Assembly: GCF_002214605.1 (NCBI RefSeq)
Contig: NZ_CP015193.1
Coordinates: 848,978-912,977 of the forward strand
Length of the DNA stretch: 64,000 nucleotides
Reading direction: 5' to 3'
Source of the DNA: Thermococcus chitonophagus
GTDB lineage: Archaea; Methanobacteriota_B; Thermococci; Thermococcales; Thermococcaceae
The notes beneath the pieces are model-generated. The model was not told the DNA's origin, did no database searches, and saw only the letters and a program-made list of their open reading frames with translations. This document shows, piece after piece, positions 4,685 through 33,849 of the stretch (its first letter is position 1; each line of letters begins with the position of its first letter). The translations under genes and the position numbers were made by a program.

Positions 4685-7408
4685 ATGCAGTCCGTTAAGA
4701 AGGTTATCGGTAGTATTGAGTTTGGTATCCTCTCACCCCAGGAAATAAGGAAGATGAGTGCAGTTGAGGTTACAGTCCCAGACACTTACGACGATGACGG
4801 TTACCCCATTGAAGGCGGTGTAATGGACAAAAGGATGGGAGTTATTGACCCAGGACTTAGATGTGAGACCTGTGGGGCAAGGGCCGGGGAGTGTCCTGGT
4901 CACTTCGGGCACATAGAGCTTGCCAGGCCCGTGATCCACGTTGGATTTGCCAAGACCATACACAGAATCCTTGAAAGCACGTGTAGAGAGTGTGGAAGGA
5001 TAAAGCTCACCGATGAGGAAATCGAGGAGTACATGAAGAAGCTTGAGCTAGCTAAGAACAGGAGGAGTGAAGTGAACAAGATACTCAAGGAGATTCATAA
5101 GAAGGCAAGAGAGAGAATGGTCTGCCCGCACTGTGGTGCTCCTCAGTTCCCCATTAAGTTCGAGAAGCCAACAATTTACTGGGAGATAAGGAAGGACGAG
5201 CAGGGTAATGAGTATAAGCACAGGATGATGCCCACAGAGGTTAGGGACAGACTTGAGAAGATCCCGGATAAGGATCTCCCACTCCTCGGCCTACACCCCG
5301 AGAAGTCAAGGCCCGAGTGGATGGTTCTCACGGTTCTCCCGGTTCCCCCAGTTACCGTTAGACCCTCAATTACCCTTGAGACTGGTATTAGAGCTGAAGA
5401 CGATCTTACCCACAAGCTTGTCGATATCATTAGGATTAACAATAGGCTCAAGCAGAACATCGAGGCTGGAGCTCCTCAACTTATTATCGAAGATCTTTGG
5501 GACCTCCTCCAGTATCACGTTACCACTTACATAAACAACGAAACCTCGGGGGTTCCCCCCGCAAAGCACAAAAGTGGAAGGCCCCTCAAGACACTTGCCC
5601 AGCGTCTCAAGGGTAAGGAGGGAAGATTTAGAGGCAACCTAAGCGGTAAGAGAGTTAACTTCTCAGCGAGAACCGTCATAAGCCCAGATCCAATGATAAG
5701 CATCAACGAGGTTGGAGTTCCAATCCAAATAGCTATGGAACTCACGGTTCCCGAGAAAGTAACGGAGTTTAACATTGAGAAGCTTAAGAAAATGGTTCTC
5801 AATGGTCCCGACAAGTATCCTGGGGCTAACTATGTCATCGATCCTGATGGGAAGAGAATTAGAATAATGGAGAGTAACAGGGAATTCCTCGCTGAGAGGC
5901 TTGACATAGGCTGGACAGTGGAGAGGCACCTTCTCGATGGTGACATAGTGCTGTTCAACAGACAGCCCTCTCTGCACAGGATGAGCATTATGGCCCACCG
6001 CGTTAGAGTAATGCCCTACAAGACATTCAGGCTTAACTTGGCAGTTTGTCCACCTTACAACGCTGACTTCGATGGAGATGAGATGAACCTTCACGTTCCT
6101 CAGACCGAGGAAGCCCAGGCTGAGGCGAGAATACTTATGGAAGTTCAGAACCATATTCTCTCCCCAAGGTATGGAGGGCCTATCATAGGTGGAATTCAGG
6201 ATCACATTTCAGGGGGATACCTACTAACCAGAGAGGGAGCGTACTTCACGAGGGAAGAGGTTGAGCAGATGCTAATGTTTGCCGGCGTTGACATTAAGGA
6301 GCTCCCTGAACCCGACAAATATGAAGATGGCAAACCATTATGGAGCGGAAAGACGATATTCTCCCTATTACTCCCGGATGACCTAACGGTTTGGTATAGG
6401 AACAAGCTCTGCGACGAACCTGAGAGGTGTGAGGCCTTAGAGAAGCTAATTGAGGAGAAGCTCATACCTGATCCTGAGGAAGTAAGGAAACTGGCTTACG
6501 ATGGCTTTGTTTACATTCAGAACGGTAAACTACTGAGTGGTGCTATTGATAAAAAGGCCTATGGTAGAGAGGATGGAATAATCCTCGACCTCATAGTGAG
6601 GGAGTATGGAGTTGAGAGAGCGAGACAGTTCCTTGATCAAGTTACAAAGCTTGCAATATGGGTGATTACTCACAAGGGCTTCACAACGGGAATTGATGAC
6701 GAAGATCTGCCGGAGGAGGCCAGGGACAGGATAAGGGAAATAATTAGGGAGGCGGAAGAGAGAGTTCAAAGGTTAATTGAGGCTTATAAGAGAGGAGAGC
6801 TTGAGCCTCTCCCAGGAAAAACACTTGAAGAGACATTGGAGAGCAAGATCATGGCAGTTCTTGCTGAAGCTAGAGATAATGCTGGTTCAATAGCCGAAAA
6901 GTACCTTGGTATGGACAACCACACTGTTATCATGGCCAAGACCGGAGCTAGAGGTAAAATACTTAACATAACCCAGATGGCAGCTTTGCTCGGTCAGCAG
7001 TCAATTAGAGGTAAGAGGCTGTACAGAGGATTCAAGGGCAGGGTTCTAAGCCACTTCAAGCCAGGAGATCTTGGAGCTAGAGCAAGGGGATTCGTAGTTA
7101 ACTCATACAAGAGCGGCCTGAGCCCACAAGAGTACTTCTTCCACGCTATGGGTGGTAGGGAAGGTCTCGTCGATACAGCCGTAAGAACTGCTCAGAGCGG
7201 TTACATGCAGAGGAGGCTGATCAATGCTCTTCAGGATCTCAAAGTTGACTACGATGGTACAGTTAGGGATCCAACGGGCGTCATAGTTCAGTTCAAGTAC
7301 GGTGAAGATGGAGTTGATCCCATGAAGAGTTGGGGAGGAAAAACTGTGGATGTTGATAGGATAATTGTGAGAACTCTGCTGAAGGTTAGGGCAAATGGAA
7401 AGAGGTGA
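4685..7408 (+). CDS. rpoA1: DNA-directed RNA polymerase subunit A' (Rpo1N)
   Basis: N-terminal two-thirds of the largest RNA polymerase subunit, 907 residues. It holds the Mg-binding active-site loop [12 protein letters not shown] (near residue 458). N-terminal zinc sites are CETC...CPGHFGH (about 60-76) and CREC...CPHC. The ATG start follows GAGGGTGTGAG. The protein is uninterrupted, so no intein is present. Its stop codon overlaps the ribosome binding site of rpoA2, which carries the remaining C-terminal part of the subunit. Confidence 0.98.
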
Positions 7409-7413
7409 TTGTT

Positions 7414-8604
7414 ATGGTCTCTTCCTCCACTATTAAATCTTTAATTGAAAAGAAAGGGAAGAACCTTCCAGAGAGCGTTAAACAGGAACTCTATGAGAAG
7501 CTTTTGAAGTACAATGAGAAGTACAAGCTCACAAAGGCAGAAGTTGAAATGATAGTTGAAGAGGTTGTAAAGGAGTACGAGAGAGCCTTAGTCGAACCTG
7601 GTGAGGCTGTTGGTACAGTTGCCGCTCAGTCAATTGGAGAGCCTTCAACTCAGATGACCCTCAACACCTTCCACTATGCAGGTGTTGCCGAAATTAACGT
7701 TACCCTAGGTTTGCCCAGAATCATCGAAATAGTCGATGCGAGGAAGAATCCTTCGACGCCAATGATGACTGTTTATCTTGATGAAGAGCATCGCTATGAG
7801 AGGGCAAAGGCAGAGGAAGTTGCGAGAAGGATTGAGGGAACTACCTTGGAGAATCTTGCGAGAAGCACAACTCTAGATCTTATCAACATGGAATTTATAG
7901 TTGAAATAGATCCCGAGAGACTCGAGAAGAGTGGGCTTACAATGGAGAAAATCTTAAAGAAGCTTCAGGGCTCGTTTAAGAGCGCCGAGTTTGAGGCGGA
8001 GGGTTACACGCTTATCGTTAGGCCAAAGAAAGTTGAGAAGATCTCAGACCTTAGGAGGCTTGCCGAAAAGGTTAAAAAGCACCGTCTTAAGGGTCTCTCG
8101 GGCGTTGGGAAGACCATCGTAAGGAAGGAAGGCGATGAATACGTGATCTATACGGAGGGTTCAAACTTCAAGCAGGTCCTTAAAGTTCCTGGGGTTGATC
8201 CCACAAGGACAAGAACTAATAACATCCATGAGATCGCCGAAGTGCTGGGCATTGAGGCCGCAAGGAATGCCATTATAGAGGAGATAATAAACACGATGCG
8301 CGAGCAGGGTCTTGAGGTTGATATAAGGCATATCATGCTGGTTGCTGATATAATGACTCTTGATGGCATTGTAAGGCCCATCGGTAGGCACGGTGTAGTT
8401 GGTGAAAAGGCAAGCGTCCTTGCAAGGGCGGCCTTCGAGATAACTACGCAACACCTGTTTGAGGCCGCCGAGAGGGGAGAAGTTGACAACCTCAACGGTG
8501 TAATTGAAAACGTCCTAATCGGGCAGCCCGTTCCAGTGGGAACGGGCATAGTTAAGTTGACAATGAAGCTACCACTAAGGCCACAGAAGGAAGAGGAGGT
8601 GTGA
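7414..8604 (+). CDS. rpoA2: DNA-directed RNA polymerase subunit A'' (Rpo1C)
   Basis: C-terminal third of the largest RNA polymerase subunit, supplied as a separate polypeptide in archaea. The ATG at 7414 ([10 protein letters not shown]) is preferred because GAGGTGA at 7402-7408 lies six bases before it; this gives 396 residues, the normal size. The upstream GTG at 7405 sits inside that binding site. The conserved block with [21 protein letters not shown] (near residue 65) includes the trigger-loop/bridge-helix support region. The gene is tightly coupled to rpoA1. Confidence 0.97.
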
Positions 8605-8607
8605 TGA

Positions 8608-8907
8608 ATGGATTTAGCGTTTGAGCTTAGGAAGGCTATGGAAACTGGTAAGGTTATTCTCGGTTCTAATGAAACAATAAGGCTTGCAAAGACTGGTGGC
8701 GCTAAGCTAATAATCGTTGCAAAGAACGCTCCCAAGGAAATCAAGGACGACATCTACTATTATGCGAAGCTCAGCGACATTCCAGTTTATGAGTTTGAGG
8801 GAACGAGTGTTGAGTTGGGAACACTCCTTGGTAAGCCCTTCGTTGTAGCTTCACTTGCAATAGTTGACCCCGGCGAGAGCAAGATACTAGCACTGGCAAA
8901 GAGGTGA
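8608..8907 (+). CDS. rpl30e: ribosomal protein L30e
   Basis: A 99-residue member of the L7Ae/L30e/S12e RNA-binding family. It shows the L30e pattern of [23 protein letters not shown] near the N terminus and a C-terminal [15 protein letters not shown]. It is a component of the large subunit. The position between rpoA2 and nusA is the usual archaeal order. The ATG at 8608 follows GAGGAGGTGTGATGA with a four-base gap after the rpoA2 stop. Confidence 0.95.
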
Positions 8908-8915
8908 GATAGAAA

Positions 8916-9353
8916 ATGCCACTGAAACTCAACACAGACCAGATAAAGTACATAGCGCTTTTCGAGAGCTTTACAGGGGCCACTGTTCTTGATTGTCTTA
9001 TTGATCAGGAGAGGAACAGGCTCATCTACGTCATCAAGAAGGGAGAAATGGGTCTGGCCTTGGGCAAGAGGGGAATGAACGTCAGAAGAATCGAAAACCT
9101 CATTGGAAAGGAGATCGACCTCGTGGAGCACTCGGAGAATCCGGAAGAGTTCATAAAGAACATATACAAGACGATGGGCGTAAAGGTTAAAAGAGTTCAC
9201 ATAACTGAAAAGAGAGACGGCAAGAAGGTTGCTCTCCTTGACGTTAATCCGAGGGACAAGCCGAGGGCAATTGGTAGGGGTGGCCATAACATTAATATTG
9301 TGAAGCAATTAATGGAGAGACACCACGGAATTGAAGATGTGATAATAATTTAA
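8916..9353 (+). CDS. nusA: NusA-like transcription termination/elongation factor
   Basis: Archaeal NusA, 145 residues, made only of two KH RNA-binding domains. It lacks the S1 and N-terminal polymerase-binding domains of bacterial NusA. GxxG-type KH loops are visible as [14 protein letters not shown] (about 48-61) and [13 protein letters not shown] (about 117-129). It sits in the polymerase/ribosomal-protein operon just before rps12, as in most archaea. Confidence 0.95.
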
Positions 9354-9363
9354 GGTGATGCTC

Positions 9364-9807
9364 ATGCCAGGTAAGAAGGCTCCAAATGGTGAATTCGCCG
9401 GTAGGAAGTTAAAGCTCAAGAGGAAGAAGTTCAGGTGGAGCGATATCAGGTATAAGAGGAGAGTCCTTAGGCTCAAGGAGAAGAGCGATCCACTCGAAGG
9501 TGCACCACAGGCCAGAGGAATAGTCCTTGAGAAGATAGCTGTGGAAGCAAAGCAGCCCAACTCAGGAATGCGTAAGGCAGTTAGAGTTCAGCTCATCAAG
9601 AACGGTAAGGTCGTTACCGCGTTCTGTCCTGGTGTTGGTGCTATCAACTTCATCGACGAGCACGATGAAGTAATCATCGAGGGTATCGGTGGTCCAAAGG
9701 GTGGTTCAATGGGTGACATCCCAGGAATCAGGTATAAGGTAGTTAAAGTAAACAGGGTCTCCCTCAAGGAGCTAGTTAAGGGTAGGAAGGAGAAGCCAAG
9801 GAGGTGA
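9364..9807 (+). CDS. rps12: ribosomal protein S12 (uS12)
   Basis: Decoding-centre protein of the small subunit. The ATG at 9364 ([11 protein letters not shown]) gives 147 residues, the family length, and lies five bases after AGGTGA. The earlier in-frame GTG and ATG codons sit on the binding site itself. Conserved [15 protein letters not shown] and [20 protein letters not shown] are present. In the block I recall as CPGDGAINF in relatives, this copy reads CPGVGAINF, replacing an acidic residue. It is followed by rps7. Confidence 0.96.
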
Positions 9808-9812
9808 AGTCA

Positions 9813-10460
9813 ATGGCCAAGCCATTGAGCGAGAGGTTCTTCATTCCCAATGAGATCAGGGTTATGGGAAGATGGAGCACTGAAGACGTTGAAGTTAGGG
9901 ATCCATCACTCAGGCCTTACATAAACCTCGAGCCAAGGCTGCTCCCCCACACCCATGGAAGGCATGCCAAGAAGCACTTTGGAAAGGCAAACGTCCACAT
10001 CGTGGAGAGGCTAATTAACAAGATTATGAGGAGCGGTGGAAGCCACTACAAGGTTGCTGGTCACTTCATGAGGAGAGAGCACAGGTCACTTAACAGCAAG
10101 AAAGTCAAGGCTTACGAAGTCGTCAAGGAGGCATTCAAGATAATTGAGAAGAGGACTGGGAAGAACCCAATTCAGGTTTTAGTGTGGGCCATCGAGAATG
10201 CTGCTCCAAGAGAAGATACAACGAGCGTAATGTTCGGTGGTATAAGGTACCACGTTGCAGTTGATATTTCACCACTAAGGAGACTTGACGTTGCGCTGAG
10301 GAACATTGCCCTTGGTGCTTCAGCCAAGTGCTACAGGACCAAGATGAGCTTTGCTGAGGCCCTAGCTGAGGAGATAATCTTGGCTGCAAACAAGGATCCA
10401 AAGAGCTACGCCTACAGCAAGAAGCTTGAGATTGAGAGGATTGCAGAATCCTCACGTTGA
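9813..10460 (+). CDS. rps7: ribosomal protein S7 (uS7)
   Basis: Small-subunit head protein that binds the 3' major domain of 16S rRNA. The ATG at 9813 ([10 protein letters not shown]) gives 215 residues and follows GGAGGTGAA. Family motifs include [29 protein letters not shown] and [20 protein letters not shown]. The S12-S7 pairing is conserved across life. Confidence 0.97.
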
Positions 10461-10491
10461 TCTCCTATTCCTTTTCTCTTAGGTGTTTTTA

Positions 10492-10848
10492 ATGTTCAAG
10501 TACAAGCAGGTTATCGTTGTTAGGAAAGATTTAAAGCTCAGTAAAGGAAAACTGGCTGTTCAGGTTGCCCACGGGGCCGTTACTGCCGCTTTTAGGGCTT
10601 ACAAAGAAAAGAGAGAATGGTTTGAGAGATGGTTCAACGAGGGACAGAAGAAAGTGGTAGTTAAAGTTGAGAAGCTTGAAGATCTCTTTGAGCTGAAGGA
10701 GAAAGCCGAAAAGCTCGGCCTGCCTACTGCGTTAATTCAAGATGCTGGATTAACAGAAATCCCCCCTGGAACTATAACCGTTCTTGCCGTGGGTCCTGCG
10801 CCTGGTGAATTAGTAGATAAAGTTACAGGTCACCTAAAACTTCTTTGA
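10492..10848 (+). CDS. pth2: peptidyl-tRNA hydrolase, archaeal/eukaryotic type (Pth2)
   Basis: Releases peptides from prematurely dropped peptidyl-tRNA. The protein is 118 residues from the ATG at 10492 ([11 protein letters not shown]). Pth2 hallmarks are [16 protein letters not shown] (catalytic-site region), [14 protein letters not shown] and the final LAVGPAP...VTGHLKLL. The upstream in-frame GTG at 10483 lacks a binding site. The 3' end overlaps the convergent ATPase gene by 26 bases. Confidence 0.95.
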
Positions 10849-12172
10849 AATCCTTTAAATCCCACACGAGACCTTTTCTGCCCCTGTACTCCTTCGCTAT
10901 TATGCCGTAGTACTTTTTCCAGCCCTTGAATCTCGTTAGCTCAGCTTTCCTCTTCAATGAGCTTAAAATTGCCTCGATATCTCTGCTCCTTAACTTCTCC
11001 CACTTAACTTCGACGAATAAAACCTTCTTCTCCTTTTCATTTATTCCGATTATATCAATCTCCTCGTTCTTTTTCCACCATTTTCCGACGTTGGTGATTT
11101 TAAAGGGGAGCATGTCTTTCTTGCCTGCCTCAATCAGGAATTCCTTCCCAACTCTCTCGAAGACGAATCCAAGGTACCTGTTGTACTCCTGCTCAAAGTC
11201 TTCAATGTACCCGAACTCTAGGAGCTGGGTTTTGTTTGGATAGACGAACCTGAACCAGAACGTGAAGTAGAGGTCGCTTATATAGTACCTCCTGTTTCTG
11301 GCTTTTTCAATATCCCCAAGTGGATACTCCTCCTTGACTATGTGTAGGAGCCTCAAGTTTTCCAAATATTGAGATACCGTAGATGGTGGTAGGCCTGTGT
11401 AGTTTACTATCTCTCCGAACTTTGTATTCCCAAATGCTATCGCCTTCAGTATCTTAAAGTACCTTCCAGGTTCTCTCAATTCGCTCCTCAGTAAAAATTC
11501 CGCCTCATCAAACAGCATTTTGTTTGGCTGGAAAACTTCCTCGAGCTTTTCCCCTGATTCCAGTCTAAACTTAACTTCCTCTATATAAGCTGGTATCCCA
11601 TCGGTTATTCCAAATATTCTCACTAGTTCCTCCCATGATTTCTCGGGAAAGAACTCCTTGAGGTGGAAGAACTTTAGGGGTCTGAGTTTTATAGATAACG
11701 TTCTCCTACCGTATAGGGGACTCTTGTACCCTAAAACTTGGCTCTCCATTATACTTATTGATGATCCCGTCAGGACAAGCTTTAATCTCTTTGAGCGATC
11801 GAAGATTTTCTGGAATTTGGAAACTATCCCCTTATTTCCCTTAATCAGGTTTGGAAATTCATCTATTATGACAACATATTCGTTTTCCTCTAGTATCTCG
11901 AAAAGCTCCTCCCAGGTAAGCTCAGCCTTTTCGATTAGCTTGTTTTTGAGACCCCTCGCGACTATTCTCTTAAAGTTATCCAAGTTATCTTTTTCCAGTG
12001 TTTCCTCCGCAAAGAAATAGATATGCCTGACTCCTCTTACGGACTCTTTAACAAGCCTAGTCTTTCCAATCCTCCTCCTTCCATAAATTATTATCAGCTC
12101 CTTCCTTCTGCTTGAGTACGCTCTCCTTAGCAGTTCCAGTTCTTCTCTCCTATCAACAAATAGTTCACACAT
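10823..12172 (-). CDS. archaeal AAA ATPase with C-terminal DUF234 domain
   Basis: A 449-residue member of the archaeal ATPase family expanded in Pyrococcus. The P-loop is GRRRIGKT (about 31-38) and the Walker B is [11 protein letters not shown] (about 98-108). A winged-helix-like segment ([14 protein letters not shown]) follows. The C-terminal DUF234 part has a PD-(D/E)XK-like pattern: EIDIIG, then VEVKW near 390-410. That domain could be a nuclease or a degenerate one. Cellular role is unknown; links to mobile elements and toxin-like functions have been proposed for the family. Only AT-rich sequence precedes the ATG, and a 7-base inverted repeat spans the start region (12162-12196). Confidence 0.88.
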
Positions 12173-14871: not shown

Positions 14872-15348
14872 CTATTTGCCTGCTAAAGCGTCGTAAAAAG
14901 ATACCTCAAGACCTTTGAGGGTCTTAACACCGACTAGAACTTTATATTCTTTTACTGTGCTTTCTCCTCTTAAAACACTCTCGATTTCCTTGGTAAGTTC
15001 CTCAAGGTTATCTCCAAAGAATCCTACTATAAGATCATAGTCTCCGAGAGTCTTGTATACTTCAAATGTTCTTTTGCATTCCATAAGTTTCCTCATAAAT
15101 CTAACTATCTCCTCTTCCTTTGCGGCAGGGTTTAGTTTTATTAAAACGATTGCGTAGGAGTAACCAACTTTATCGAATCTTAGGTACGCAGATATGAAGA
15201 TATATCCTCTCCTTATAAGGTTTGTACGCCTCCATCTTACTGCGGATTTTGACATTCCTAATTTTCTTGCTATCTCCGCGTCGCTTATTCTCCCATTTTT
15301 CTTTAATAATTCAATTATGCACCAATCTTTTTCCGATAACTTTGACAT
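14872..15348 (-). CDS. Lrp/AsnC family transcriptional regulator
   Basis: A 158-residue regulator with an N-terminal winged helix (DAEIARKLGMSKSAVRWRRTNLI, about 23-45) and a C-terminal RAM-like domain (GDYDLIVGFFGDNLEEL). The family senses amino acids or related small molecules and often controls an adjacent gene. It is transcribed divergently from the racemase/DUF917/OPT cluster with only about 150 bases between, so it is the obvious candidate regulator of that cluster. A weak ACCATT/AATGGT inverted pair lies in the intergenic region (15373-15407). Confidence 0.9.
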   Translation of the reverse strand: MSKLSEKDWCIIELLKKNGRISDAEIARKLGMSKSAVRWRRTNLIRRGYIFISAYLRFDKVGYSYAIVLIKLNPAAKEEEIVRFMRKLMECKRTFEVYKTLGDYDLIVGFFGDNLEELTKEIESVLRGESTVKEYKVLVGVKTLKGLEVSFYDALAGK

Positions 15349-15452: not shown

Positions 15453-15495
15453 TTGTCTATTGTGAAGTTCCTTATTGCTACTTTCTGATTCAGCA

Positions 15496-16197
15496 ATGTC
15501 TAAAATTTGGGCTCAGAAAGCTAATTTGGTGACTAGTGTAATGTACAATATTGGTTTGATTAGGGTTTTAACTTTGGAGGATGAAGATTCCTTAAACGCT
15601 CATGGAAGGTTAATTGAACGGACATTTCCCGAACTTAAGGTGGAGAGTCGATGCATAGAAGACCAGCCATTTGGCATATACGATAAAGAAAGCGAAGAGA
15701 AAGCCAAACCAAAGGTCATTAGGCTGGCAAAAGCTTTTGAAAAGGATGGAAAAGATGCAGTCATAATAAGCTGTGCTGCTGATCCGGCTGTCAAGGAGTT
15801 AAGAAAAGTTCTAAAAATCCCGGTCATTGGAGCAGGATCCTCTGCAGCCCTTCTAGCTTTGGAAGTTGGGGATAGTGTTGGAGTTATAAACTTAACCGAA
15901 GAGACTCCAAAGGCTATCTCCGAAATTCTCGGGAATCACTTAGTGGTCGAAGCCAAGCCCAAGAGAGTTAAAAATACCCTTGATCTCCTAAAAGAAGAAA
16001 GTAAAGAGGAAATTATTAAACTAGCTAAAGAAATGGAAAAAGATGTTGATGTGATAATTCTTGGATGTACTGGTATGTCTACAATTGGAGTTGCCGGCTT
16101 GCTTTCTAAGCGGGTTAATGTTCCTATTGTTGATCCGGTCGTAGCCTCTGGGGCAATGACTCTTGCAATTCTGAAGAATATAGATGCATGGAGGTGA
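15496..16197 (+). CDS. Asp/Glu/hydantoin racemase family protein
   Basis: A 233-residue cofactor-independent racemase of the Asp/Glu/hydantoin superfamily. The two catalytic-type cysteines are Cys93 (IISCAADPAV) and Cys191 (LGCTGMSTIG). The LGCTGMS pattern resembles hydantoin racemase more than glutamate racemase. A likely substrate is an amino acid or 5-substituted hydantoin. The ATG at 15496 is chosen; the frame is open to a TTG at 15475, but that lies at the predicted transcription start. It heads the nine-gene cluster and ends overlapping the binding site of the DUF917 gene. Confidence 0.85.
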   Translation: MSKIWAQKANLVTSVMYNIGLIRVLTLEDEDSLNAHGRLIERTFPELKVESRCIEDQPFGIYDKESEEKAKPKVIRLAKAFEKDGKDAVIISCAADPAVKELRKVLKIPVIGAGSSAALLALEVGDSVGVINLTEETPKAISEILGNHLVVEAKPKRVKNTLDLLKEESKEEIIKLAKEMEKDVDVIILGCTGMSTIGVAGLLSKRVNVPIVDPVVASGAMTLAILKNIDAWR

Positions 16198-16202
16198 TTA
16201 AT

Positions 16203-17288
16203 TTGAGAATAAAAATCAATGAAGAAATGGCTGAATTTGCCGTAATTGGAGGAGCATTTTTTGGTGGAGGGGGTGGAGGAAACATTGAATTAGGTCTCAG
16301 ACATGCCAAACTTGCCTTGGAACTGGGTGATGTAGTGTTAGTAGATATAGATGACTTACCCCAGGATAGTACCATAGTTACCGTATCCCTTGTGGGTGCG
16401 CCCTCGTCCAAGGAGGCATTTGTTACACCATCTCACATGATCAAGGCTTTTGAGTGTATGAAAGATGAGATTGGGGAGATCGCTGGAGTTATAACTTCCG
16501 AAAATGGTGGATACTCCACGATTAATGGATGGATTCAAGCTGCTGTTTTCGAAATTCCTGTGGTCGATGCGCCTGCTGATGGAAGAGCGCATCCTACTGG
16601 AGTTATGGGTTCTTTAGGCTTACACAATCTCCCTGGCTATGTTTCAACCCAAGTGGGTGTTGGAGGTAATCGGGAAAAAGGTAAGTATGTGGAGGTTGTT
16701 GCAAAGGGGAGTGTTTTATCAACATCTAGGATAATTAGGGAAGCAGCAGTTGAGGCAGGTGGCCTTATAGCTGTTGTTAGGAACCCTGTTTCTGTTAAAT
16801 ACGTGAAGGAAAATGCTGCCCTAGGAGCTATTAAAAAGGCAATAGATGTCGGAAAGATAATTCTTCGGTATAAGGAAGACCCTGGGAAAATGGCAGAGGA
16901 ACTGTGTTCAAAACTTGGTGGTAAGGTTGTAGGAGAGGGGAGGGTAGTTAAATATTGGCTCGAAAGTCGGGGTGGATTTGATATAGGGAGGATAATAATT
17001 GCAGATGAGAATAGGCGCGAGGTCGAATTAGTTTTCTGGAATGAGTTCATGAAATTACAAAGCAATGGAATAGAACTTGCTAAGTTCCCAGATCTAATAG
17101 TTTTATTAGATAAGCAAACAGGACTACCACTGACATCTGCAGAAGTTAAAGTTGGTGATCAGGTTATCGTTCTCATAGTTCCAAAGGAAAAGATACCCTT
17201 GGGATCTGGGGTTTTAGATCCTCAGGCTCTTTCTGTCATTGAAAGTGTAATAAACGGGGGTGATGGCTATGCTAAAGCAGGTGATTGA
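16203..17288 (+). CDS. DUF917 family protein (S-methyl-thiohydantoin desulfurase-like)
   Basis: A 361-residue DUF917 protein. This Pfam family has been renamed after S-methyl thiohydantoin desulfurase and is related to hydantoinase/oxoprolinase proteins. Visible family features are a glycine run GGAFFGGGGGG (about 16-26), SENGGYSTINGW, and VVDAPADGRAHPTG (about 120-133), equivalent to the family's DADGxGRAxP block. The TTG at 16203 is preferred because GGAGGTGAT at 16190-16198 precedes it. The ATG at 16188 would overlap the previous gene and hide that site. It probably acts on a ring-containing amide; the substrate is unknown. Confidence 0.83.
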   Translation: MRIKINEEMAEFAVIGGAFFGGGGGGNIELGLRHAKLALELGDVVLVDIDDLPQDSTIVTVSLVGAPSSKEAFVTPSHMIKAFECMKDEIGEIAGVITSENGGYSTINGWIQAAVFEIPVVDAPADGRAHPTGVMGSLGLHNLPGYVSTQVGVGGNREKGKYVEVVAKGSVLSTSRIIREAAVEAGGLIAVVRNPVSVKYVKENAALGAIKKAIDVGKIILRYKEDPGKMAEELCSKLGGKVVGEGRVVKYWLESRGGFDIGRIIIADENRREVELVFWNEFMKLQSNGIELAKFPDLIVLLDKQTGLPLTSAEVKVGDQVIVLIVPKEKIPLGSGVLDPQALSVIESVINGGDGYAKAGD

Positions 17289-18192
17289 GGCTTATGAGCT
17301 TCTGGATAGTGCAAGGGTAGATGGTTATACTGTGGCAGATTTTCTGAAGGGAAGGGGAGTAAAGGAAGTTGAAGTTACAACGATTGAGGGAGAAAAAGGA
17401 TCCACCGACTTTGTTAAAATAGTCATCCCCGGAAAGGACAGCAAAGCTCCTAAATTAGGAATTATTGGGAGACTTGGTGGTATTGGAGCTAGGCCAGAAA
17501 GGATAGGGCTTGTCTCTGATGCAGATGGTGCAATTACTGCAATAGCAGTTGCTTTAAAGTTGGCAGACATGCAAAGCAATGGCGATATTCTCCCTGGGGA
17601 TGTTATAATATCAACGCACATATGCCCAGATGCTCCTACTAAGCCTCATGAACCGGTTCCTTTCATGGACTCCCCCGTTGATATAGCTACTATGAACAAA
17701 TATGAAGTTGACAAGAGAATGGATGCAATACTCTCAATAGACACAACTAAGGGAAATAGGATTATCAATATACGGGGATTCGCAATAACTCCTACGATTA
17801 AGGAAGGCTGGATTTTGAGAGTTAGTGAAGATCTTCTTGATATTATGGAATATGTGACTGGTAGAATGCCCGCTGTGGTTCCAATAACAATGCAGGATAT
17901 AACTCCATATGGAAATGGCATTTATCATATTAATAGCATCGTGCAACCAGCAACTGCAACGGACGCTCCTGTTGTTGGTGTTGCAATTACCGCTGAAGTT
18001 CCTGTTCCTGGATGTGCGACTGGGGCTAGTCACGAGATTGATATAGAGCTAGCTGGCCGGTTCTGTATAGAGGTTGCTAAGGGATTTGGAGCTGGCAAGG
18101 TCAAGTTCTACGATGAAGACGAATTTAGAAGACTGGTGGAATTGTATGGAAGTATGAAGCATTTACAAACTCTAGGGAGGCTTGAAAAGTGA
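17269..18192 (+). CDS. DUF1177 family protein, possible degenerate M42/M20-fold hydrolase
   Basis: A 307-residue protein that I assign to DUF1177 by its sequence and its neighbours (AroM, OPT). The ATG at 17269 follows GGGGGTGA. The order of motifs parallels the M42 aminopeptidase found elsewhere in this window. SDADGAITAIAVALKL (83-98) resembles [26 protein letters not shown] (110-123) matches the [13 protein letters not shown] position. DAILSIDTT (152-160) matches GFAIDVT. GASHEIDIE (252-260) matches [11 protein letters not shown]. Asp84 or Asp86, Asp121, Asp158 and His255 could therefore be metal ligands. The first M42 histidine (AHMD) has no clear counterpart. Function is inferred, not shown. 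Confidence 0.75.
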   Translation: MLKQVIEAYELLDSARVDGYTVADFLKGRGVKEVEVTTIEGEKGSTDFVKIVIPGKDSKAPKLGIIGRLGGIGARPERIGLVSDADGAITAIAVALKLADMQSNGDILPGDVIISTHICPDAPTKPHEPVPFMDSPVDIATMNKYEVDKRMDAILSIDTTKGNRIINIRGFAITPTIKEGWILRVSEDLLDIMEYVTGRMPAVVPITMQDITPYGNGIYHINSIVQPATATDAPVVGVAITAEVPVPGCATGASHEIDIELAGRFCIEVAKGFGAGKVKFYDEDEFRRLVELYGSMKHLQTLGRLEK

Positions 18193-18848
18193 AAGTTGGG
18201 TTTATAACAATTGGCCAAAGCCCCAGAGTTGACGTTGTTCCTGAGATACTTCCCTATATACCTGGGGTTGATGTCATAGAATGCGGAGCTCTTGACGGCT
18301 TGTCTATGGATGAAATTAAAAGGCTCGCTCCCAGGGAAGGTGATTACGTCCTAGTAACGAGGCTCAGAGATGGAAGTGAAGTGAAACTTAGCCGGGACAA
18401 AATTGTGAAGAGATTGCAAGAGTGTATAGACTTCCTTGAGAGCAAGGGTGTTGATGTAATAGGACTACTGTGTACTGGAGAGTTCCCAGAGCTCTCATCA
18501 AAGAGTGCAATGTTGATAGAACCATCTAACCTGCTCATAAAGCTCGTTGAAGCTATTAACCCCAAAATCCTAGGCGTCGTAATTCCAGATAACGCCCAAA
18601 TAGACATGACGAAGGACAAGTGGAGTAGGTGCTGTGATAAGGTAATTGTCGTTAGCTTCTCTCCCTATTCTGGGGATGAAAAAGAACTTCCTAACGTCTT
18701 GGAGCCCCTTAAGGATGCAGATCTGATAGTGCTTGATTGTATAGGATATCCGGCTAGAATTAAGTATATCGTTAAGAGGGCTCTAAATATTCCGGTTTTG
18801 TTGCCGAGGAGTGTTCTTGGAAAAGTAATAGCAGAACTGGGGGAGTGA
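18189..18848 (+). CDS. AroM family protein
   Basis: A 219-residue AroM-type protein; the family has no established reaction. Signature stretches are FITIGQSPRVD (5-15), CGALDGL (32-38), GLLCTGEFP (92-100) and VLDCIGY (181-187). Cys95 and Cys184 are placed much as the paired cysteines of Asp/Glu racemases, and AroM is distantly related to that fold. It may be an isomerase, racemase or C-N/C-C lyase acting on the same compound as the first gene. The GTG start overlaps the TGA of the DUF1177 gene (GTGA), indicating translational coupling. Confidence 0.83.
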   Translation: MKVGFITIGQSPRVDVVPEILPYIPGVDVIECGALDGLSMDEIKRLAPREGDYVLVTRLRDGSEVKLSRDKIVKRLQECIDFLESKGVDVIGLLCTGEFPELSSKSAMLIEPSNLLIKLVEAINPKILGVVIPDNAQIDMTKDKWSRCCDKVIVVSFSPYSGDEKELPNVLEPLKDADLIVLDCIGYPARIKYIVKRALNIPVLLPRSVLGKVIAELGE

Positions 18849-18850
18849 AA

Positions 18851-19801
18851 ATGAACATTTATGATGCATGTGAAGTTGCACTGAAGAAGTGTTTGGGGGT
18901 AAAGGAAGGAGAAATAGTCCTAATAATAGCTGATGAAAACACTAGAAAAATTGGATGGGCACTTTGGGAGAAGGCCAGAGAACTTAAAGCTGAAGCAATT
19001 TATACTGAGATAATTCCAAGGAAAGTGCACGGAGAAGAGCCACCAAAGCCTATTGCTGAAGCAATGAAATTTGCTGATGTTGTAATTGCCCCAACTACGA
19101 AATCCATAACACATACCTTAGCAAAGAAGGAGGCATGCGAAAGGGGAGTTAGAGTTGCAACACTCCCAGGAATAACGGAAGATGTATTCGTTAGGACTCT
19201 GAACGCTGACTATGATGAGATAGTAGAACTAACGAATAAAATCGCTGATATTCTCGACAGAGGGACTCAAGTAAGAATAGTCACAAGGCTTGGGACTGAT
19301 ATCAGCTTTTCGATAGAGGGAAGAAAGGCTAGGAGGAGTACTGGAGTTTACAAGAACCCAGGGGAATGTGGAAACCTACCTGGGGCGGAAGCATATATAG
19401 CTCCTGTCGAGGGGACTGGAAATGGTACTGTTGTTGTGGACGGTTCTATGGCTGGAATAGGCCTACTCAAGAACCCGATAAAGCTGACTTTTGTTGATGG
19501 TTATCTTGAAAAAATCGAAGGAGGTGATGAAGCAAGGAAATTGGAAGAAATATTGGCCCCATATGGAAAAGAAGCAAGAAACCTTGCGGAGTTTGGAGTG
19601 GGAACAAATCCCAACGCAAGGCTTAGTGGCAATATTTTAGAGGATGAGAAAGTCTTTGGAACTGTGCATATAGCTATAGGGAGTAACTATGATTTTGGAG
19701 GGAAAGTAAGGGCTCCTATACATCTTGACGGGATAATAAAGGAGCCTACTGTTTTTGTCGACGGAGAGATGGTGTTTAGGGATGGTAAACTACTCGTATA
19801 G
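18851..19801 (+). CDS. M29-type (leucyl/PepT-like) aminopeptidase
   Basis: A 316-residue protein of the thermophilic metallopeptidase M29 family, shorter than the classical about 400. Residues matching the M29 dinuclear site are all visible: Glu180 (NLPGAEAYIAP), Glu247 (LAEFGVG), His273 (VHIAIGSN), and His291 with Asp293 (PIHLDG). It is therefore probably an active cytosolic aminopeptidase. The ATG at 18851 follows GGGGGAGTGA, and the AroM stop lies within that site. Together with the OPT transporter it suggests import followed by stepwise hydrolysis of a peptide-like compound. Confidence 0.85.
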   Translation: MNIYDACEVALKKCLGVKEGEIVLIIADENTRKIGWALWEKARELKAEAIYTEIIPRKVHGEEPPKPIAEAMKFADVVIAPTTKSITHTLAKKEACERGVRVATLPGITEDVFVRTLNADYDEIVELTNKIADILDRGTQVRIVTRLGTDISFSIEGRKARRSTGVYKNPGECGNLPGAEAYIAPVEGTGNGTVVVDGSMAGIGLLKNPIKLTFVDGYLEKIEGGDEARKLEEILAPYGKEARNLAEFGVGTNPNARLSGNILEDEKVFGTVHIAIGSNYDFGGKVRAPIHLDGIIKEPTVFVDGEMVFRDGKLLV

Positions 19802-19817
19802 TTTGTAGGTGAGTGAA

Positions 19818-21404
19818 ATGGACAACGTTGAGAGAAAGCATCCATCCGCTCTTGAGCCTGGTGTTTTGGTTCTCAACATAGCGATGGCTGTCTTAGGCTC
19901 GATAATAGGTCTTGAGCTAATCACTAGACTTGGAATTACAACAAACACATCAATTATAGGTGCCCTTATAGCAATCCTCCTTGCAAGGATACCTATCAAG
20001 GTACTAAAAGCATTTCTTGACTTAAATAGACAAAATCTCGTTCAGACTGCAATATCTGGAGCAACCTTTGGTGCCGCAAATGCAATATTTCTCCCAATAG
20101 GTGTTACTTGGCTTTTAGGTAGACAAGACCTCTTAGTTCCGATGTGGATTGGTGCGACCCTTGCAGCGATAATCGATATGACAATGATATACTGGCTTTT
20201 TGACACTAGAATCTTTCCAGCAAAGAATCCATGGCCCCCAGGCATAGCTACCGCAGAAACTTTGATAGCTGCAGCTAAAAAAGGAAAAAGAGCAATGCTA
20301 CTTTTATATGGCATGATAGCTGGTGGAATAGTGAGGTACTTAGGAATTCCAGCCGATATAGCTGGAGTTGCTTGGATTGGAAACATATGGGCCCTAACAA
20401 TGTTCGGAATAGGCTTAATTGTTAGAGGTTATTCACCGAAGCTCTTTGGAGTTGACATCAATAAGTACTATGCTCCTCACGGAATAATGATAGGTGCTGG
20501 ACTAGTGGCTTTGATCCAGATAATCCTAATAATATCAAAGAAAGCAAAGTCTATAAAAGAGGGAGAGCTTGATTACCCTCTAACTAGAACTGAAGAAGAC
20601 ATTAAGAAAGCTTTAACAAGAGGATTTGGCCTTTACCTTGTCATAGCCTTGGCTCTTGCGCTACTTGGTGGCCTATATACTGGAATGTCGGCGGGCATGT
20701 TCATTTGGTGGTTCGTATTCGCAGCAATAGCTGCCCTTGTTTCTGAGCTCATAGTTGGTCTATCGGCGATGCACGCTGGATGGTTCCCTGCGTTTGCAAC
20801 AGCCTTGATATTCCTAATACTCGGTATCCTAATGGGATTCCCAGCTCCAGCCTTGGGTCTTTTAGTGGGATTCACTGCTGCAACTGGTCCTGCATTTGCA
20901 GATATGGGATACGACTTGAAGACTGGATGGATAATTAGAGGAGAAGGCAAGGACATAAAATTCGAACTAGAGGGAAGAAAACAACAGTATATAGCGGAGC
21001 TAACTGGTCTTATAATAGCAACTACAATGGTTGCACTCTTTGCAAAGACGTACTTATCTCAGAACTTAGTGCCACCCGTTGACAGGGTCTACGTGGCCAC
21101 AATCAAAGCTGGTGCTAGCCCTGAAATAGCTAAATACCTAATAATGTGGGCAATCCCTGGGGCAATAGTTCAGGCAATTGGTGGACCAGACAGACAATTG
21201 GGTATCCTATTTGCAACGGGTCTTCTTATAAAGTATCCAATAGCGGGTATCACGGTGTTAGTGGCAATAGCAATTAGGCTTCTCGTTACAAAGATGTATA
21301 AAGAAGAGGGACAACAAGCTCTTTACGTCTTAGGTGCAGGTCTTATAGCGGGTTCAACACTCGTGAGCTTCTTCACATCGACACTTAAGATAGGGAAGAA
21401 GTAG
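19818..21404 (+). CDS. OPT family oligopeptide/YSL-type transporter
   Basis: A 528-residue integral membrane protein with about 13-14 hydrophobic segments. It resembles the OPT/YSL family, secondary transporters for oligopeptides or metal-chelate peptides: FLPIGVTWLLGRQD, a cytoplasmic loop near 240-265, and ATGPAFADMGYDLKTGWIIRG. The ATG at 19818 follows TAGGTGA. Being inside the cluster it is the likely importer of the substrate handled by the neighbouring enzymes. A T-rich stretch after the stop (21405-21435) may cause partial termination before the next gene. Confidence 0.83.
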   Translation: MDNVERKHPSALEPGVLVLNIAMAVLGSIIGLELITRLGITTNTSIIGALIAILLARIPIKVLKAFLDLNRQNLVQTAISGATFGAANAIFLPIGVTWLLGRQDLLVPMWIGATLAAIIDMTMIYWLFDTRIFPAKNPWPPGIATAETLIAAAKKGKRAMLLLYGMIAGGIVRYLGIPADIAGVAWIGNIWALTMFGIGLIVRGYSPKLFGVDINKYYAPHGIMIGAGLVALIQIILIISKKAKSIKEGELDYPLTRTEEDIKKALTRGFGLYLVIALALALLGGLYTGMSAGMFIWWFVFAAIAALVSELIVGLSAMHAGWFPAFATALIFLILGILMGFPAPALGLLVGFTAATGPAFADMGYDLKTGWIIRGEGKDIKFELEGRKQQYIAELTGLIIATTMVALFAKTYLSQNLVPPVDRVYVATIKAGASPEIAKYLIMWAIPGAIVQAIGGPDRQLGILFATGLLIKYPIAGITVLVAIAIRLLVTKMYKEEGQQALYVLGAGLIAGSTLVSFFTSTLKIGKK

Positions 21405-21455
21405 TAGCTTTTTCTATTTTCTTTCCCTACTTTCTAAATTTTGGAGGTGTTAAAG

Positions 21456-22514
21456 TTGAAAATGTATGAATTTGAATTAGGGTTAGCGGCGGAAAAATTA
21501 GTTCGCGATATCCTCAATGTTAAAGATGGAGAAGTAGTGGCAATAACTGCGGATACGCTATCAAGTGAAGACGTTGTAAATGCAACTGCTCGAGAAGTTT
21601 TTAAATGTGGGGGGAAGCCTCTCGTACTCTGGATCCCAACCCCTCCGGGAGTTGGAAAAGCCGCGGACCCAGCTCTCCCACAGCGAGCATTGATTGGCAT
21701 GTTAAAGGGTGTTGATATTTGGATAGAGTTTAACCATAACTGGCTGTTGTATTCAACCGTGTTTGATGAAGTACTCCAGGAGAATAAAGACCTTAGATAT
21801 ATCTGCTTAGTTGGCATGAACCCAGAGATTATGGTCAGGACTATTGGAAAGGTAAACATGGTAGCTCTAGCTGAATTTTTAGAGAAGCTCGGGGAGTTAA
21901 CGAGTAGTGCCAGGGAAGTCAGGATAACGACGCCCGCTGGTACAGACGTTGAGTTCAGGAACAAAAAAGGTAGGCCTATAATAGTTCACTCAGGACGCGT
22001 GAATAAGGGAGAGTACGAAATGCTCCCTGGTCAGATAAGCTGGACTCCTAAATTAAAAACGATCTATGGCAAAATTGTTTTTGATGGATCTTTGTATCCC
22101 CCAATAGGTCTTCTAAGGGATCCAGTAACTTTGATCATTGAAAAAGGGAGAATAGTTGATATACAGGGAAAAAGAGAAGCTCAGGAATTTGAAAAATGGC
22201 TAGAGAGTTTTGAGGACGAGAATATGTATCAACTTGCCCATATCTCATATGGGTTTAATCCAGGCGCTAAACTCACCGGAAACATAGTAGAAGATGAAAG
22301 GGTCTGGGGTGCGACTGAGTGGGGCGTTGGCAATATTGGACCCAGATTGGTTCCTGACATCCCAGGTGGCGTTCCGGCGGCTTCTCATTCCGATGGGATA
22401 TGCTTGAGGTCTTCAGTATGGTTAGATGACACTGCAATTATGAGCGAAGGGGAAGTTGTGAGTCCTCAATATCTTGTTGAGCTTGCAAATAAAGCCAGAA
22501 AGCTTGAAATGTGA
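21456..22514 (+). CDS. M29/NicX-like protein with 2-His-1-Asp site
   Basis: A 352-residue homologue of the previous M29-type protein, but with altered ligands. The position of Glu180 is Gln193 here (MLPGQISWTP). Glu247 is replaced by His262 (LAHISYGFNPGA). The middle His is lost (WGATEWGVGN). His311 and Asp313 remain (SHSDG). This H...H-x-D set matches NicX, the Fe(II) 2,5-dihydroxypyridine 5,6-dioxygenase, as I recall its sequence (SHIGWGLQP...CHLD). It may thus be a mononuclear metalloenzyme cleaving a ring rather than a peptidase. TTG at 21456, six bases after GGAGGTG, is the probable start; ATG at 21462 is the alternative. Confidence 0.8.
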   Translation: MKMYEFELGLAAEKLVRDILNVKDGEVVAITADTLSSEDVVNATAREVFKCGGKPLVLWIPTPPGVGKAADPALPQRALIGMLKGVDIWIEFNHNWLLYSTVFDEVLQENKDLRYICLVGMNPEIMVRTIGKVNMVALAEFLEKLGELTSSAREVRITTPAGTDVEFRNKKGRPIIVHSGRVNKGEYEMLPGQISWTPKLKTIYGKIVFDGSLYPPIGLLRDPVTLIIEKGRIVDIQGKREAQEFEKWLESFEDENMYQLAHISYGFNPGAKLTGNIVEDERVWGATEWGVGNIGPRLVPDIPGGVPAASHSDGICLRSSVWLDDTAIMSEGEVVSPQYLVELANKARKLEM

Positions 22515-22528
22515 GTGGGGGTAGCAAA

Positions 22529-23047
22529 GTGGAGATAATGACCATAATTAAAGGTAGGAGAGCAGTTAGAAAATTTGATGATAAACAAATTCCCCTACAC
22601 GATCTCAAGGAAATTTTAGAGGCAGGGATATGGGCCCCGAGTGCCAGTAACATCCAACCCTGGGAATTTATCCTTGTAACAGAAAAACAGAAAATTGAAA
22701 AAATTAAATTAGTGTCCCCTGGGCTCTTTGGGAATCCAGCTGCTTTAGTAATATTATGTATCAACAAAGAAAGGGCGAAAAAAGGTGGAAGGTTGGGTGA
22801 GAAGTATGCTCTCATGGACATAGCAATGGCCGCTCAGAATATGATGCTGGTTGCGTACTCTAAGGGCATTGGTTCTTGTCCAGTTGTTTCTTTTAATAGA
22901 GTTGCAGTTAAGGAAATATTATCAATTCCAGAACATGTAGATCCAGTTCTGATACTCACCCTTGGATATCCAAAATTCTGGCCGAAGCCTCCAAAAAGAC
23001 GAAAAGAGGTGATGCATCTTGAAGAATACGGAAACGTTATTGAATGA
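22529..23047 (+). CDS. nitroreductase family flavoprotein
   Basis: A 172-residue FMN-dependent nitroreductase-like protein. The N terminus IIKGRRAVRKFDDKQIP and the block AGIWAPSASNIQPWEFILV (about 40-58) bind FMN in this family. The C-terminal YSKGIGSCPVVSF and LTLGYP are also typical. GTG at 22529 is preferred, six bases after GGGGGTA; the frame opens at 22511. Such enzymes reduce nitro groups, quinones, or C=C and C=N bonds using NAD(P)H. Its substrate here is unknown, but its place at the end of the cluster suggests a reductive step on an unsaturated or heterocyclic intermediate. Confidence 0.88.
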   Translation: MEIMTIIKGRRAVRKFDDKQIPLHDLKEILEAGIWAPSASNIQPWEFILVTEKQKIEKIKLVSPGLFGNPAALVILCINKERAKKGGRLGEKYALMDIAMAAQNMMLVAYSKGIGSCPVVSFNRVAVKEILSIPEHVDPVLILTLGYPKFWPKPPKRRKEVMHLEEYGNVIE

Positions 23048-23309
23048 TGACCATTTTAAATTAATAGTCTTTCTTATAACAAGTGCTCGAGGACTGTTAG
23101 GTGAACCATGTCTATATGGACCACTAAGATTGCTTGATGCTGCAATTAAAACTATAGAAATAATGGAAAAATATGGCAAAGTTCCCCCAGAGATTCTTGA
23201 AATAAAGCGAGAAATAGAGAACAAGAAAAATTTAGTAATGTACGATGAAGAGGAGTTTATGGCTTTTCTTGATGAATTATCCAGGAAAATAGCCAAGCTA
23301 ATTAAATAA
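23019..23309 (+). CDS. small conserved protein (DUF6092-like)
   Basis: A 96-residue helical protein. The segment FLITSARGLLGEPCLYGPLRLLDAA resembles DUF6092, which I recall as a small family often next to redox enzymes; this assignment is tentative. The TTG start at 23019 follows AGAGGTGATG and lies inside the end of the nitroreductase gene (29-base overlap), so the two are translationally coupled. It may be an accessory subunit of the nitroreductase. It is the last gene before the CRISPR array. Confidence 0.7.
   Translation: MKNTETLLNDDHFKLIVFLITSARGLLGEPCLYGPLRLLDAAIKTIEIMEKYGKVPPEILEIKREIENKKNLVMYDEEEFMAFLDELSRKIAKLIK

Positions 23310-32763: not shown

Positions 32764-33849
<1,086 letters not shown>

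What the first reader, a model, noticed from the sequence alone, without database searches (positions are those of the whole stretch)
17269..18192. DUF1177 protein may be a remodelled M42/M20-fold peptidase
Four consecutive blocks of this protein line up in order and spacing with the M42 peptidase at 32803-33849: SDADGAITAIAVAL with [23 protein letters not shown] with [22 protein letters not shown] with YGFAIDVT, and GASHEIDIE with [11 protein letters not shown]. Asp, Asp and His ligand positions persist while the first His and the EE pair change. This would give a domain of unknown function a testable fold and active site.
Basis: partly seen in the sequence, partly recalled or inferred. Interest (0 to 1): 0.7.

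Follow-up and report, generated by a model that had tools for sequence, protein, structure and literature searches.

The report
Unknown protein with rebuilt peptidase fold
A widespread protein family of unknown function appears to have the shape of zinc peptidases but a rebuilt active site, and it sits among genes that look like a pathway for taking up and breaking down unusual peptide-like compounds.

Summary
The fold claim holds; the proposed ligand set does not. The 307-aa protein at 17269-18192 is PF06675 (DUF1177). Two confident AlphaFold2 models (pLDDT 90.5 and 89.9) match zinc exopeptidases: M42 Z 17.4, M28 Z 17.5, M20 Z 17.1, and M17 by Foldseek. M42 itself is not detectable by sequence, but a broad M20 profile is: hhalign 60-75%, 0 of 300 shuffles, in the register that puts D84 on the M20 metal-bridging Asp. 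In 148 relatives D84 and D158 are invariant. D121 is kept in only 46 and H255 in 84; the M42 metal-His position is Gly248 (148 of 148), the HxD motif reads R68-x-G70, and the catalytic Glu position is P120 (138 of 148). So it is a remodelled member of the fold, not an M42/M20/M28 peptidase by active site. The invariant set R68, D84, D86, D158, D210, H220 is the better mutagenesis target. Neighbours are S-Me-THD (DUF917), AroM, racemases, peptide importers and, in Thermococcales-like genomes, a cyclodipeptide-oxidase-like pair. This suggests a catabolic step on peptide-derived heterocycles; the reaction is inferred.

The parts
17269..18192 (+). DUF1177 protein (PF06675), 307 aa, predicted zinc-exopeptidase (MH-type) fold
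17470..17478 (+). R68-L69-G70: position of the M42 HxD metal motif (manual register [14 protein letters not shown] / APKLGIIGRLGGIG); R68 145 of 148, G70 148 of 148
17515..17529 (+). S83-D84-A85-D86-G87: position of the metal-bridging Asp of M20/M42 (D84); D84 148 of 148, D86 146 of 148 (2 Glu)
17617..17631 (+). H117-I-C119-P120-D121: strand that carries the Glu-Glu pair in M42; P120 138 of 148, D121 46 of 148, H117 134 of 148, C119 136 of 148
   Evidence: register manual
17647..17649 (+). H127 of the P-H motif, 142 of 148: possible extra ligand
17740..17742 (+). D158, end of the strand that carries the second metal Asp in M42; 148 of 148
17896..17928 (+). D210 ... H220: invariant Asp and the only invariant His of the family (both 148 of 148)
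18010..18012 (+). G248, register of the M42 metal His (RYIHS); Gly in 148 of 148
18031..18033 (+).
14872..15348 (-). Lrp/AsnC-type regulator, divergent
15475..16197 (+). Asp/Glu/hydantoin racemase family (PF01177); start codon uncertain
16188..17288 (+). S-Me-THD-like (former DUF917; PF06032 + PF20906), overlaps DUF1177 by 20 nt
18189..18848 (+). AroM (PF07302), overlaps DUF1177 by 4 nt
18845..19801 (+). M29-like aminopeptidase (PF02073 E 4.5e-12)
19809..21404 (+). OPT oligopeptide transporter (PF03169)
21441..22514 (+). second, more divergent M29-like protein (PF02073 below cut-off, 15 against 27 bits)
22511..23047 (+). nitroreductase-fold protein (PF00881), candidate cyclodipeptide oxidase subunit A
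23019..23309 (+). PF19585 (DUF6092), candidate cyclodipeptide oxidase subunit B, overlapping the A gene by 29 nt

Best explanation
DUF1177 is a zinc-exopeptidase-fold (MH-type) protein whose catalytic centre has been rebuilt. It keeps the core alpha/beta/alpha scaffold, the bridging-Asp helix (S-D84-A-D86-G) and the second metal Asp (D158). It has lost the HxD motif (now R68-x-G70), the Glu-Glu base/ligand pair (now P120-x) and the last metal His (now G248). Most likely it is a stand-alone, lid-less enzyme that binds one metal, or one metal plus an Arg/His pair, through D84, D158 and a new invariant side chain (H220 first, H127 second). It would hydrolyse an amide or carbamoyl bond in a small peptide-derived heterocycle or its ring-opened product. 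That compound would be imported by the OPT or Dpp-type transporter and processed by S-Me-THD, racemase and AroM. Shown here: the predicted fold, the conservation, the gene context. Inferred: metal binding, the reaction, the substrate, the order of steps.
For: Fold: model 1 pLDDT 90.5, pTM 0.92. Foldseek gives 368 chains at E<=1e-3, top M17 7e-9, M28 2.8e-8, DapE (M20) 3.9e-8. VIA Z 17.5 LapA (M28), 17.4 5ds0 (M42; 3.2 A over 226), 17.1 5-nitroanthranilate aminohydrolase. Model 2, on a homologue with R121 and Q255, repeats it: top row 5ds0 M42 Z 17.4. Sequence: hhalign to a 37-row M20 profile 59.6%, E 8.9e-5, 97 columns, 0 of 300 column shuffles. Site: 148 of 148 for D84, D158, D210, H220; 146 of 148 for D86; 145 of 148 for R68. 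Such strict conservation argues against a decaying pseudoenzyme. Context over 86 loci: AroM 61, S-Me-THD 39, M29 38, racemase 34, OPT or Dpp-like transporter 55 (both in 1).
Against: No coordinates were available, so clustering of R68, D84, D86, D158, H220 and H127 is unmeasured. H127 is Arg or Tyr in 6 of 148 and H117 is Asn in 12 of 148, so neither is universally needed. The M20 signal is fragile: 9.2% with the 20 classic rows alone, 0.6% with the 17 M20D rows alone. No Pfam MH family is hit by any of 75 members at E<=10. Ten of 86 loci show none of the searched neighbours (some are short or cut). A separate M20 peptidase is present in 12 of 86 loci, so DUF1177 is not simply a substitute for one.
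Confidence: 0.6

Rival explanations
1. Same fold, but a non-catalytic or non-metal protein: a subunit or chaperone of the pathway (as transferrin receptor is a dead M28 fold, recalled), with the invariant residues forming a binding or assembly surface.
For: Most of the canonical metal/base features are gone; dead members of this fold such as transferrin receptor match as well (Z 17.1).
Against: Six polar residues (D84, D158, D210, H220, and D86, R68 nearly) stay fixed across bacteria and archaea, more like an active site than an inert scaffold.
Confidence: 0.2
2. One reading: a remodelled M42/M20 metalloenzyme using D84/D86, D121, D158 and H255 as ligands.
For: D84, D86 and D158 are invariant or nearly so; blocks 1-3 rank high among registers.
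Against: D121 46 of 148, H255 84 of 148; block 4 ranks 108 of 299; hhalign puts H255 seven residues after the metal His.
Confidence: 0.05
3. An isomerase, lyase or cyclase on the same fold (as glutaminyl cyclase is on M28), acting on the hydantoin-like or peptide substrate without net hydrolysis.
For: Glutaminyl cyclases are among the Foldseek matches of model 2 (4f9u E 3.8e-7); the loss of the Glu general base fits a non-hydrolytic step; neighbours are racemase-like.
Against: Nothing specific points to it; the glutaminyl cyclase single-metal ligands (Asp, Glu, His; recalled) are not all kept here.
Confidence: 0.13
4. Fold agreement is convergence or a generic alpha/beta/alpha match, with no common descent with M20/M42.
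For: No sequence hit by BLASTP, HMMER or PDB profile search; M42 and M28 profiles are at noise.
Against: Z 15.9-17.5 over 214-263 residues in two models, with the 50 rows shown all of this superfamily; M20 profile match in the structurally expected register.
Confidence: 0.07

Closest known systems
M20 family (ArgE/DapE, HyuC-type; 5-nitroanthranilate aminohydrolase 5k8m)
   Same: Fold (Z 17.1); SDADGAITAIAVAL aligns with SDMKGGLAGLIFAA; broad profile match.
   Different: No HxD, no Glu-Glu, no final His; no dimerisation (lid) insertion: only 16 residues separate R68 and D84.
M42 tetrahedral aminopeptidases (5ds0, 9qr6, 1y0r)
   Same: Fold (Z up to 17.4, rmsd about 3.0-3.2 A, 16% identity over the aligned part for 5ds0 and 1y0r); HxD strand register rank 1 of 294.
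   Different: No profile detection; lid domain absent; HxD, Glu-Glu and last His replaced.
M28 (LapA, AAP, SGAP; glutaminyl cyclase; transferrin receptor)
   Same: Fold (Z 17.5), no inserted lid, chain length close to SGAP/AAP.
   Different: hhalign at noise; metal ligands H97, E151/E152, H256 (numbers recalled) have no counterparts.
M17 leucyl aminopeptidases
   Same: Top Foldseek rows of model 1 (E 7e-9), present in VIA rows of model 2.
   Different: hhalign 0.6%.
Cyclodipeptide-oxidase gene clusters without CDPS (PMC11055893)
   Same: Hydantoin racemase, DUF917, AroM, OPT/ABC peptide transporters, peptidases and CDO A/B are described there (section 6 read); the window operon has all of these.
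   Different: The paper does not name DUF1177 (no occurrence); most DUF1177 loci lack a CDO (B subunit in 1 of 86).

Membership tests
DUF1177 (PF06675) | Match over Pfam gathering score | tested here: met
   459.8 bits against cut-off 25
Zinc-exopeptidase / clan MH fold | Same overall fold as solved members | tested here: met
   Two predicted models, Z 15.9-17.5 in the rows shown, Foldseek E about 1e-8; prediction, not experiment
Peptidase M42 (PF05343) | Sequence-profile match to the family | tested here: not met
   No Pfam M42 hit in P0001 at E<=1 or in 75 members at E<=10; hhalign 0.5%
Peptidase M42 (PF05343) | Metal and base residues H-x-D, Asp, Glu-Glu, Asp, His | tested here: not met
   Only the two Asp positions kept: R68-x-G70, D84, P120-x, D158, G248 (register)
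Peptidase M42 (PF05343) | Inserted lid/PDZ-like domain | tested here: not met
   R68 to D84 is 16 residues against 114 (H63-D177) in the window M42; oligomeric state not testable
Peptidase M20 (PF01546) | Sequence-profile match to the family | tested here: inconclusive
   hhalign 59.6-75.3% with a mixed 37-row profile, 0 of 300 shuffles; 9.2% and 0.6% with its two parts; no Pfam hit
Peptidase M20 (PF01546) | Canonical metal ligands and Glu base | tested here: not met
   HxD and Glu-Glu absent
Peptidase M28 (PF04389) | Canonical metal ligands and profile match | tested here: not met
   hhalign 0.2-0.7%; ligands absent as above
Peptidase M17 (PF00883) | Sequence-profile match | tested here: not met
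   hhalign 0.6%; no Pfam hit
Metalloenzyme | Metal bound at D84/D158 | not testable with these tools
   No coordinates, no assay

The most novel reading that the evidence does not exclude
DUF1177 is a new enzyme class on the zinc-exopeptidase fold with its own active site (R68, D84, D86, D158, D210, H220). It carries out an amide or ring-opening step in a widespread archaeal and bacterial pathway, not yet described, that imports and dismantles cyclic or hydantoin-like peptide compounds. In Thermococcales-like genomes the pathway starts with a cyclodipeptide-oxidase-type dehydrogenation.
Probability: 0.3. Interest if true: 0.72.

Novelty: new variant of a known kind. Interest (0 to 1): 0.5.

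Why it matters
A strictly conserved family of unknown function, found in 11 of 99, 7 of 296, 27 of 300 and 33 of 299 sampled genomes of four phyla, gets a fold, a residue list for mutagenesis that differs from the first guess, and a gene context that suggests substrates to try. It would also show that the exopeptidase fold was refitted with a non-canonical centre, and would add a component to the non-CDPS oxidase clusters reported in PMC11055893.

Tried and rejected
BLASTP of DUF1177 against the window M42: only chance. phmmer and a 75-row profile against PDB sequences: no relative (the one row, RNase P, E 0.34, is noise). Search for sequence intermediates in 296 genomes: matches are either above 410 bits or below 15 bits, so no bridge was found. 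Removing the lid from the M42 profile did not help. hhalign with M28 and M17 at noise. Viral contigs: none. Viral structures: only remote M17/M14-type matches. H117/C119 as a catalytic pair was considered and set aside: Asn or Ser/Ala in a divergent clade. An extra helix-region M42 block that I tried scored as chance (rank 66 of 277). Arabidopsis 'DUF1177' in PMC4738358 (passage read) looks like a slip for DUF1117 (recalled). Literature searches for DUF1177 and PF06675 in the held library found no study of it; whether InterPro, ECOD or AlphaFold DB already place it in this fold could not be checked. Rows dropped: 6 of 80 loci (L047, L063, L067, L068, L090, L095) were left out of A3; 6 fragment rows were left out of the 148; exact duplicates were removed (150 to 148), near duplicates were not. 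The 37-row M20 profile holds repeated copies of one ORF from overlapping loci (L135, L144, L175).

Full report
What is there. The stretch 17269-18192 on the + strand encodes a 307-residue protein, PF06675 (DUF1177), E 2.7e-138. It lies inside a run of close or overlapping genes, 15475-23309: racemase (PF01177), S-Me-THD-like (PF06032/PF20906), DUF1177, AroM (PF07302), an M29-like peptidase, an OPT transporter, a second and weaker M29-like protein, a nitroreductase and PF19585, with a divergent Lrp-type regulator upstream. The genome is one 1.96-Mb contig. It is probably a Thermococcales archaeon, an inference: the closest named relative is a Thermococcus contig at 82% identity.

The observation. 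A further block, M42 [14 protein letters not shown] with APKLGIIGRLGGIG, is the best of 294 registers. Plain BLASTP sees nothing. So the pattern was real in part, but weak by itself.

The fold. AlphaFold2 with 75 sequences gave pLDDT 90.5 and pTM 0.92. Foldseek against PDB found 368 chains at E<=1e-3, led by M17 (7e-9), with M28 (1cp7, 2.8e-8) and DapE (4h2k, 3.9e-8) close behind. VIA-align gave Z 17.5 for LapA (M28; 3.4 A over 230), 17.4 for the M42 5ds0 (3.2 A over 226) and 17.1 for 5-nitroanthranilate aminohydrolase. Rows within 1 Z are ties, so no single family is preferred. A second model, on a bacterial homologue that has Arg at 121 and Gln at 255, gave pLDDT 89.9 and the same answer, M42 5ds0 first at Z 17.4. 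The order of elements fits: two helices, a hairpin, the HxD-position strand 63-67, helix 83-103, strand 112-121, strand 153-159, strand 170-178, helix 187-197, strand 235-242, helix 256-274. The M42 lid is absent: 16 residues link R68 and D84, against 114 in the window M42.

Common descent. hhalign with M42, M28 and M17 profiles is at noise. With an 11-row M20 profile the best local match is 83-115, SDADGAITAIAVALKL against SDMKGGLAGLIFAATI, 15-20%, reached by 1 of 150 column shuffles. With 37 rows it is 59.6% (75.3% from A3 alone), residues 1-115, E 8.9e-5, reached by 0 of 300 shuffles; the reversed profile gives 0.5%. Against this, the 20 classic rows alone give 9.2% and the 17 M20D rows alone 0.6%, and no Pfam exopeptidase family is hit by any of 75 members. 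I read this as borderline support in the expected register, strengthened by the structures.

The active site. In 148 relatives (75 of A3 plus 75, less 2 duplicates) these are fixed: G70, S83, D84, G87, T116, D158, N163, D210, H220, G248 (148 each), D86 (146, 2 Glu), R68 (145). Not fixed: D121 (46; Asn 56, His 16, Arg 14) and H255 (84; Gln 23, Asn 16, Arg 10, Tyr 9, Asp 6). The weak M42 match at 255-271 puts H255 on the Asp seven residues after the M42 metal His, hence that His falls on G248. H255 also lies at the start of the last helix (256-274). By this register, partly manual, the peptidase set His, Asp, Asp(bridge), Glu, Glu, Asp, His reads Arg68, Gly70, Asp84, Pro120, variable121, Asp158, Gly248. 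Two of seven remain, both Asp, and in the canonical enzymes these two sit on the same metal (recalled). The invariant H220 and D210, with R68, are the natural candidates to complete a new centre. This is inference, as no coordinates could be read.

Context. Over 86 loci (6 plasmid, 80 genome contigs, many cut short) AroM occurs in 61, S-Me-THD in 39, M29 in 38, racemase in 34, OPT in 33, Dpp-like permease or binding protein in 23, and OPT or Dpp in 55 with both in only 1, so either of two peptide importers serves. AroM follows directly in 38 and S-Me-THD precedes directly in 30. A PucR-type regulator family occurs in 22, its representative confirmed as PF07905; a family whose representative is a cytosine/purine/allantoin permease occurs in 8; M20 peptidases in 12. 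In Thermococcales-like genomes the pair PF00881/PF19585 is linked. Of 21 genomes given, 18 are of the window's family: PF19585 is in 6 of 8 with DUF1177 and 0 of 10 without (Fisher p 0.0015, not corrected for kinship). The distance is about 5 kb in the window, about 7 kb in two others and 15 kb in a third; in two the genes lie on different contigs. G025 shows the full order with an added M20 peptidase and second racemase. PMC11055893 (section 6 read) describes cyclodipeptide-oxidase clusters without a cyclodipeptide synthase that are enriched in hydantoin racemases, DUF917, AroM and OPT/ABC transporters, and names Thermococcus. PMC11760959 (passages) says the A and B genes overlap by 20-30 nt; here the overlap is 29 nt. 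DUF1177 is not named in the first paper.

Mechanism. Most likely the operon imports a peptide-derived compound, may desaturate it, opens or desulfurises a hydantoin-like ring (S-Me-THD), inverts stereocentres (racemase, AroM), and hydrolyses the products (M29, M20). DUF1177 would supply one hydrolytic step by a centre built on D84/D158. The gene set is shown; each chemical step is inferred. An inert subunit or a non-hydrolytic enzyme on the same fold remain open.

Verdict. Fold right, ligands half wrong, family membership in M42/M20/M28 not met by active site. A new variant of a known fold, with a better mutagenesis list.

Noticed in passing
22511-23309: Nitroreductase (PF00881) and PF19585 (DUF6092) genes overlapping by 29 nt look like a cyclodipeptide oxidase A/B pair in what is probably an anaerobic archaeon; PF19585 is in 6 of 8 family genomes with DUF1177 and 0 of 10 without.
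   Followed up: partly
18845-19801 and 21441-22514: Two M29-like proteins in one operon; the second scores below the Pfam cut-off (15 against 27 bits) and may be a remodelled paralogue.
   Followed up: no
   Followed up: partly
L012 (NZ_CP057460.1) 5553-10960: IclR-OPT-DUF1177-AroM-PepE-racemase cassette flanked by transposases on a conjugative Klebsiella plasmid, so the pathway can move horizontally.
   Followed up: no
L032 9629-10471: A recurrent neighbour family (7 of 86 loci) whose representative has no Pfam match at E<=0.001.
   Followed up: no
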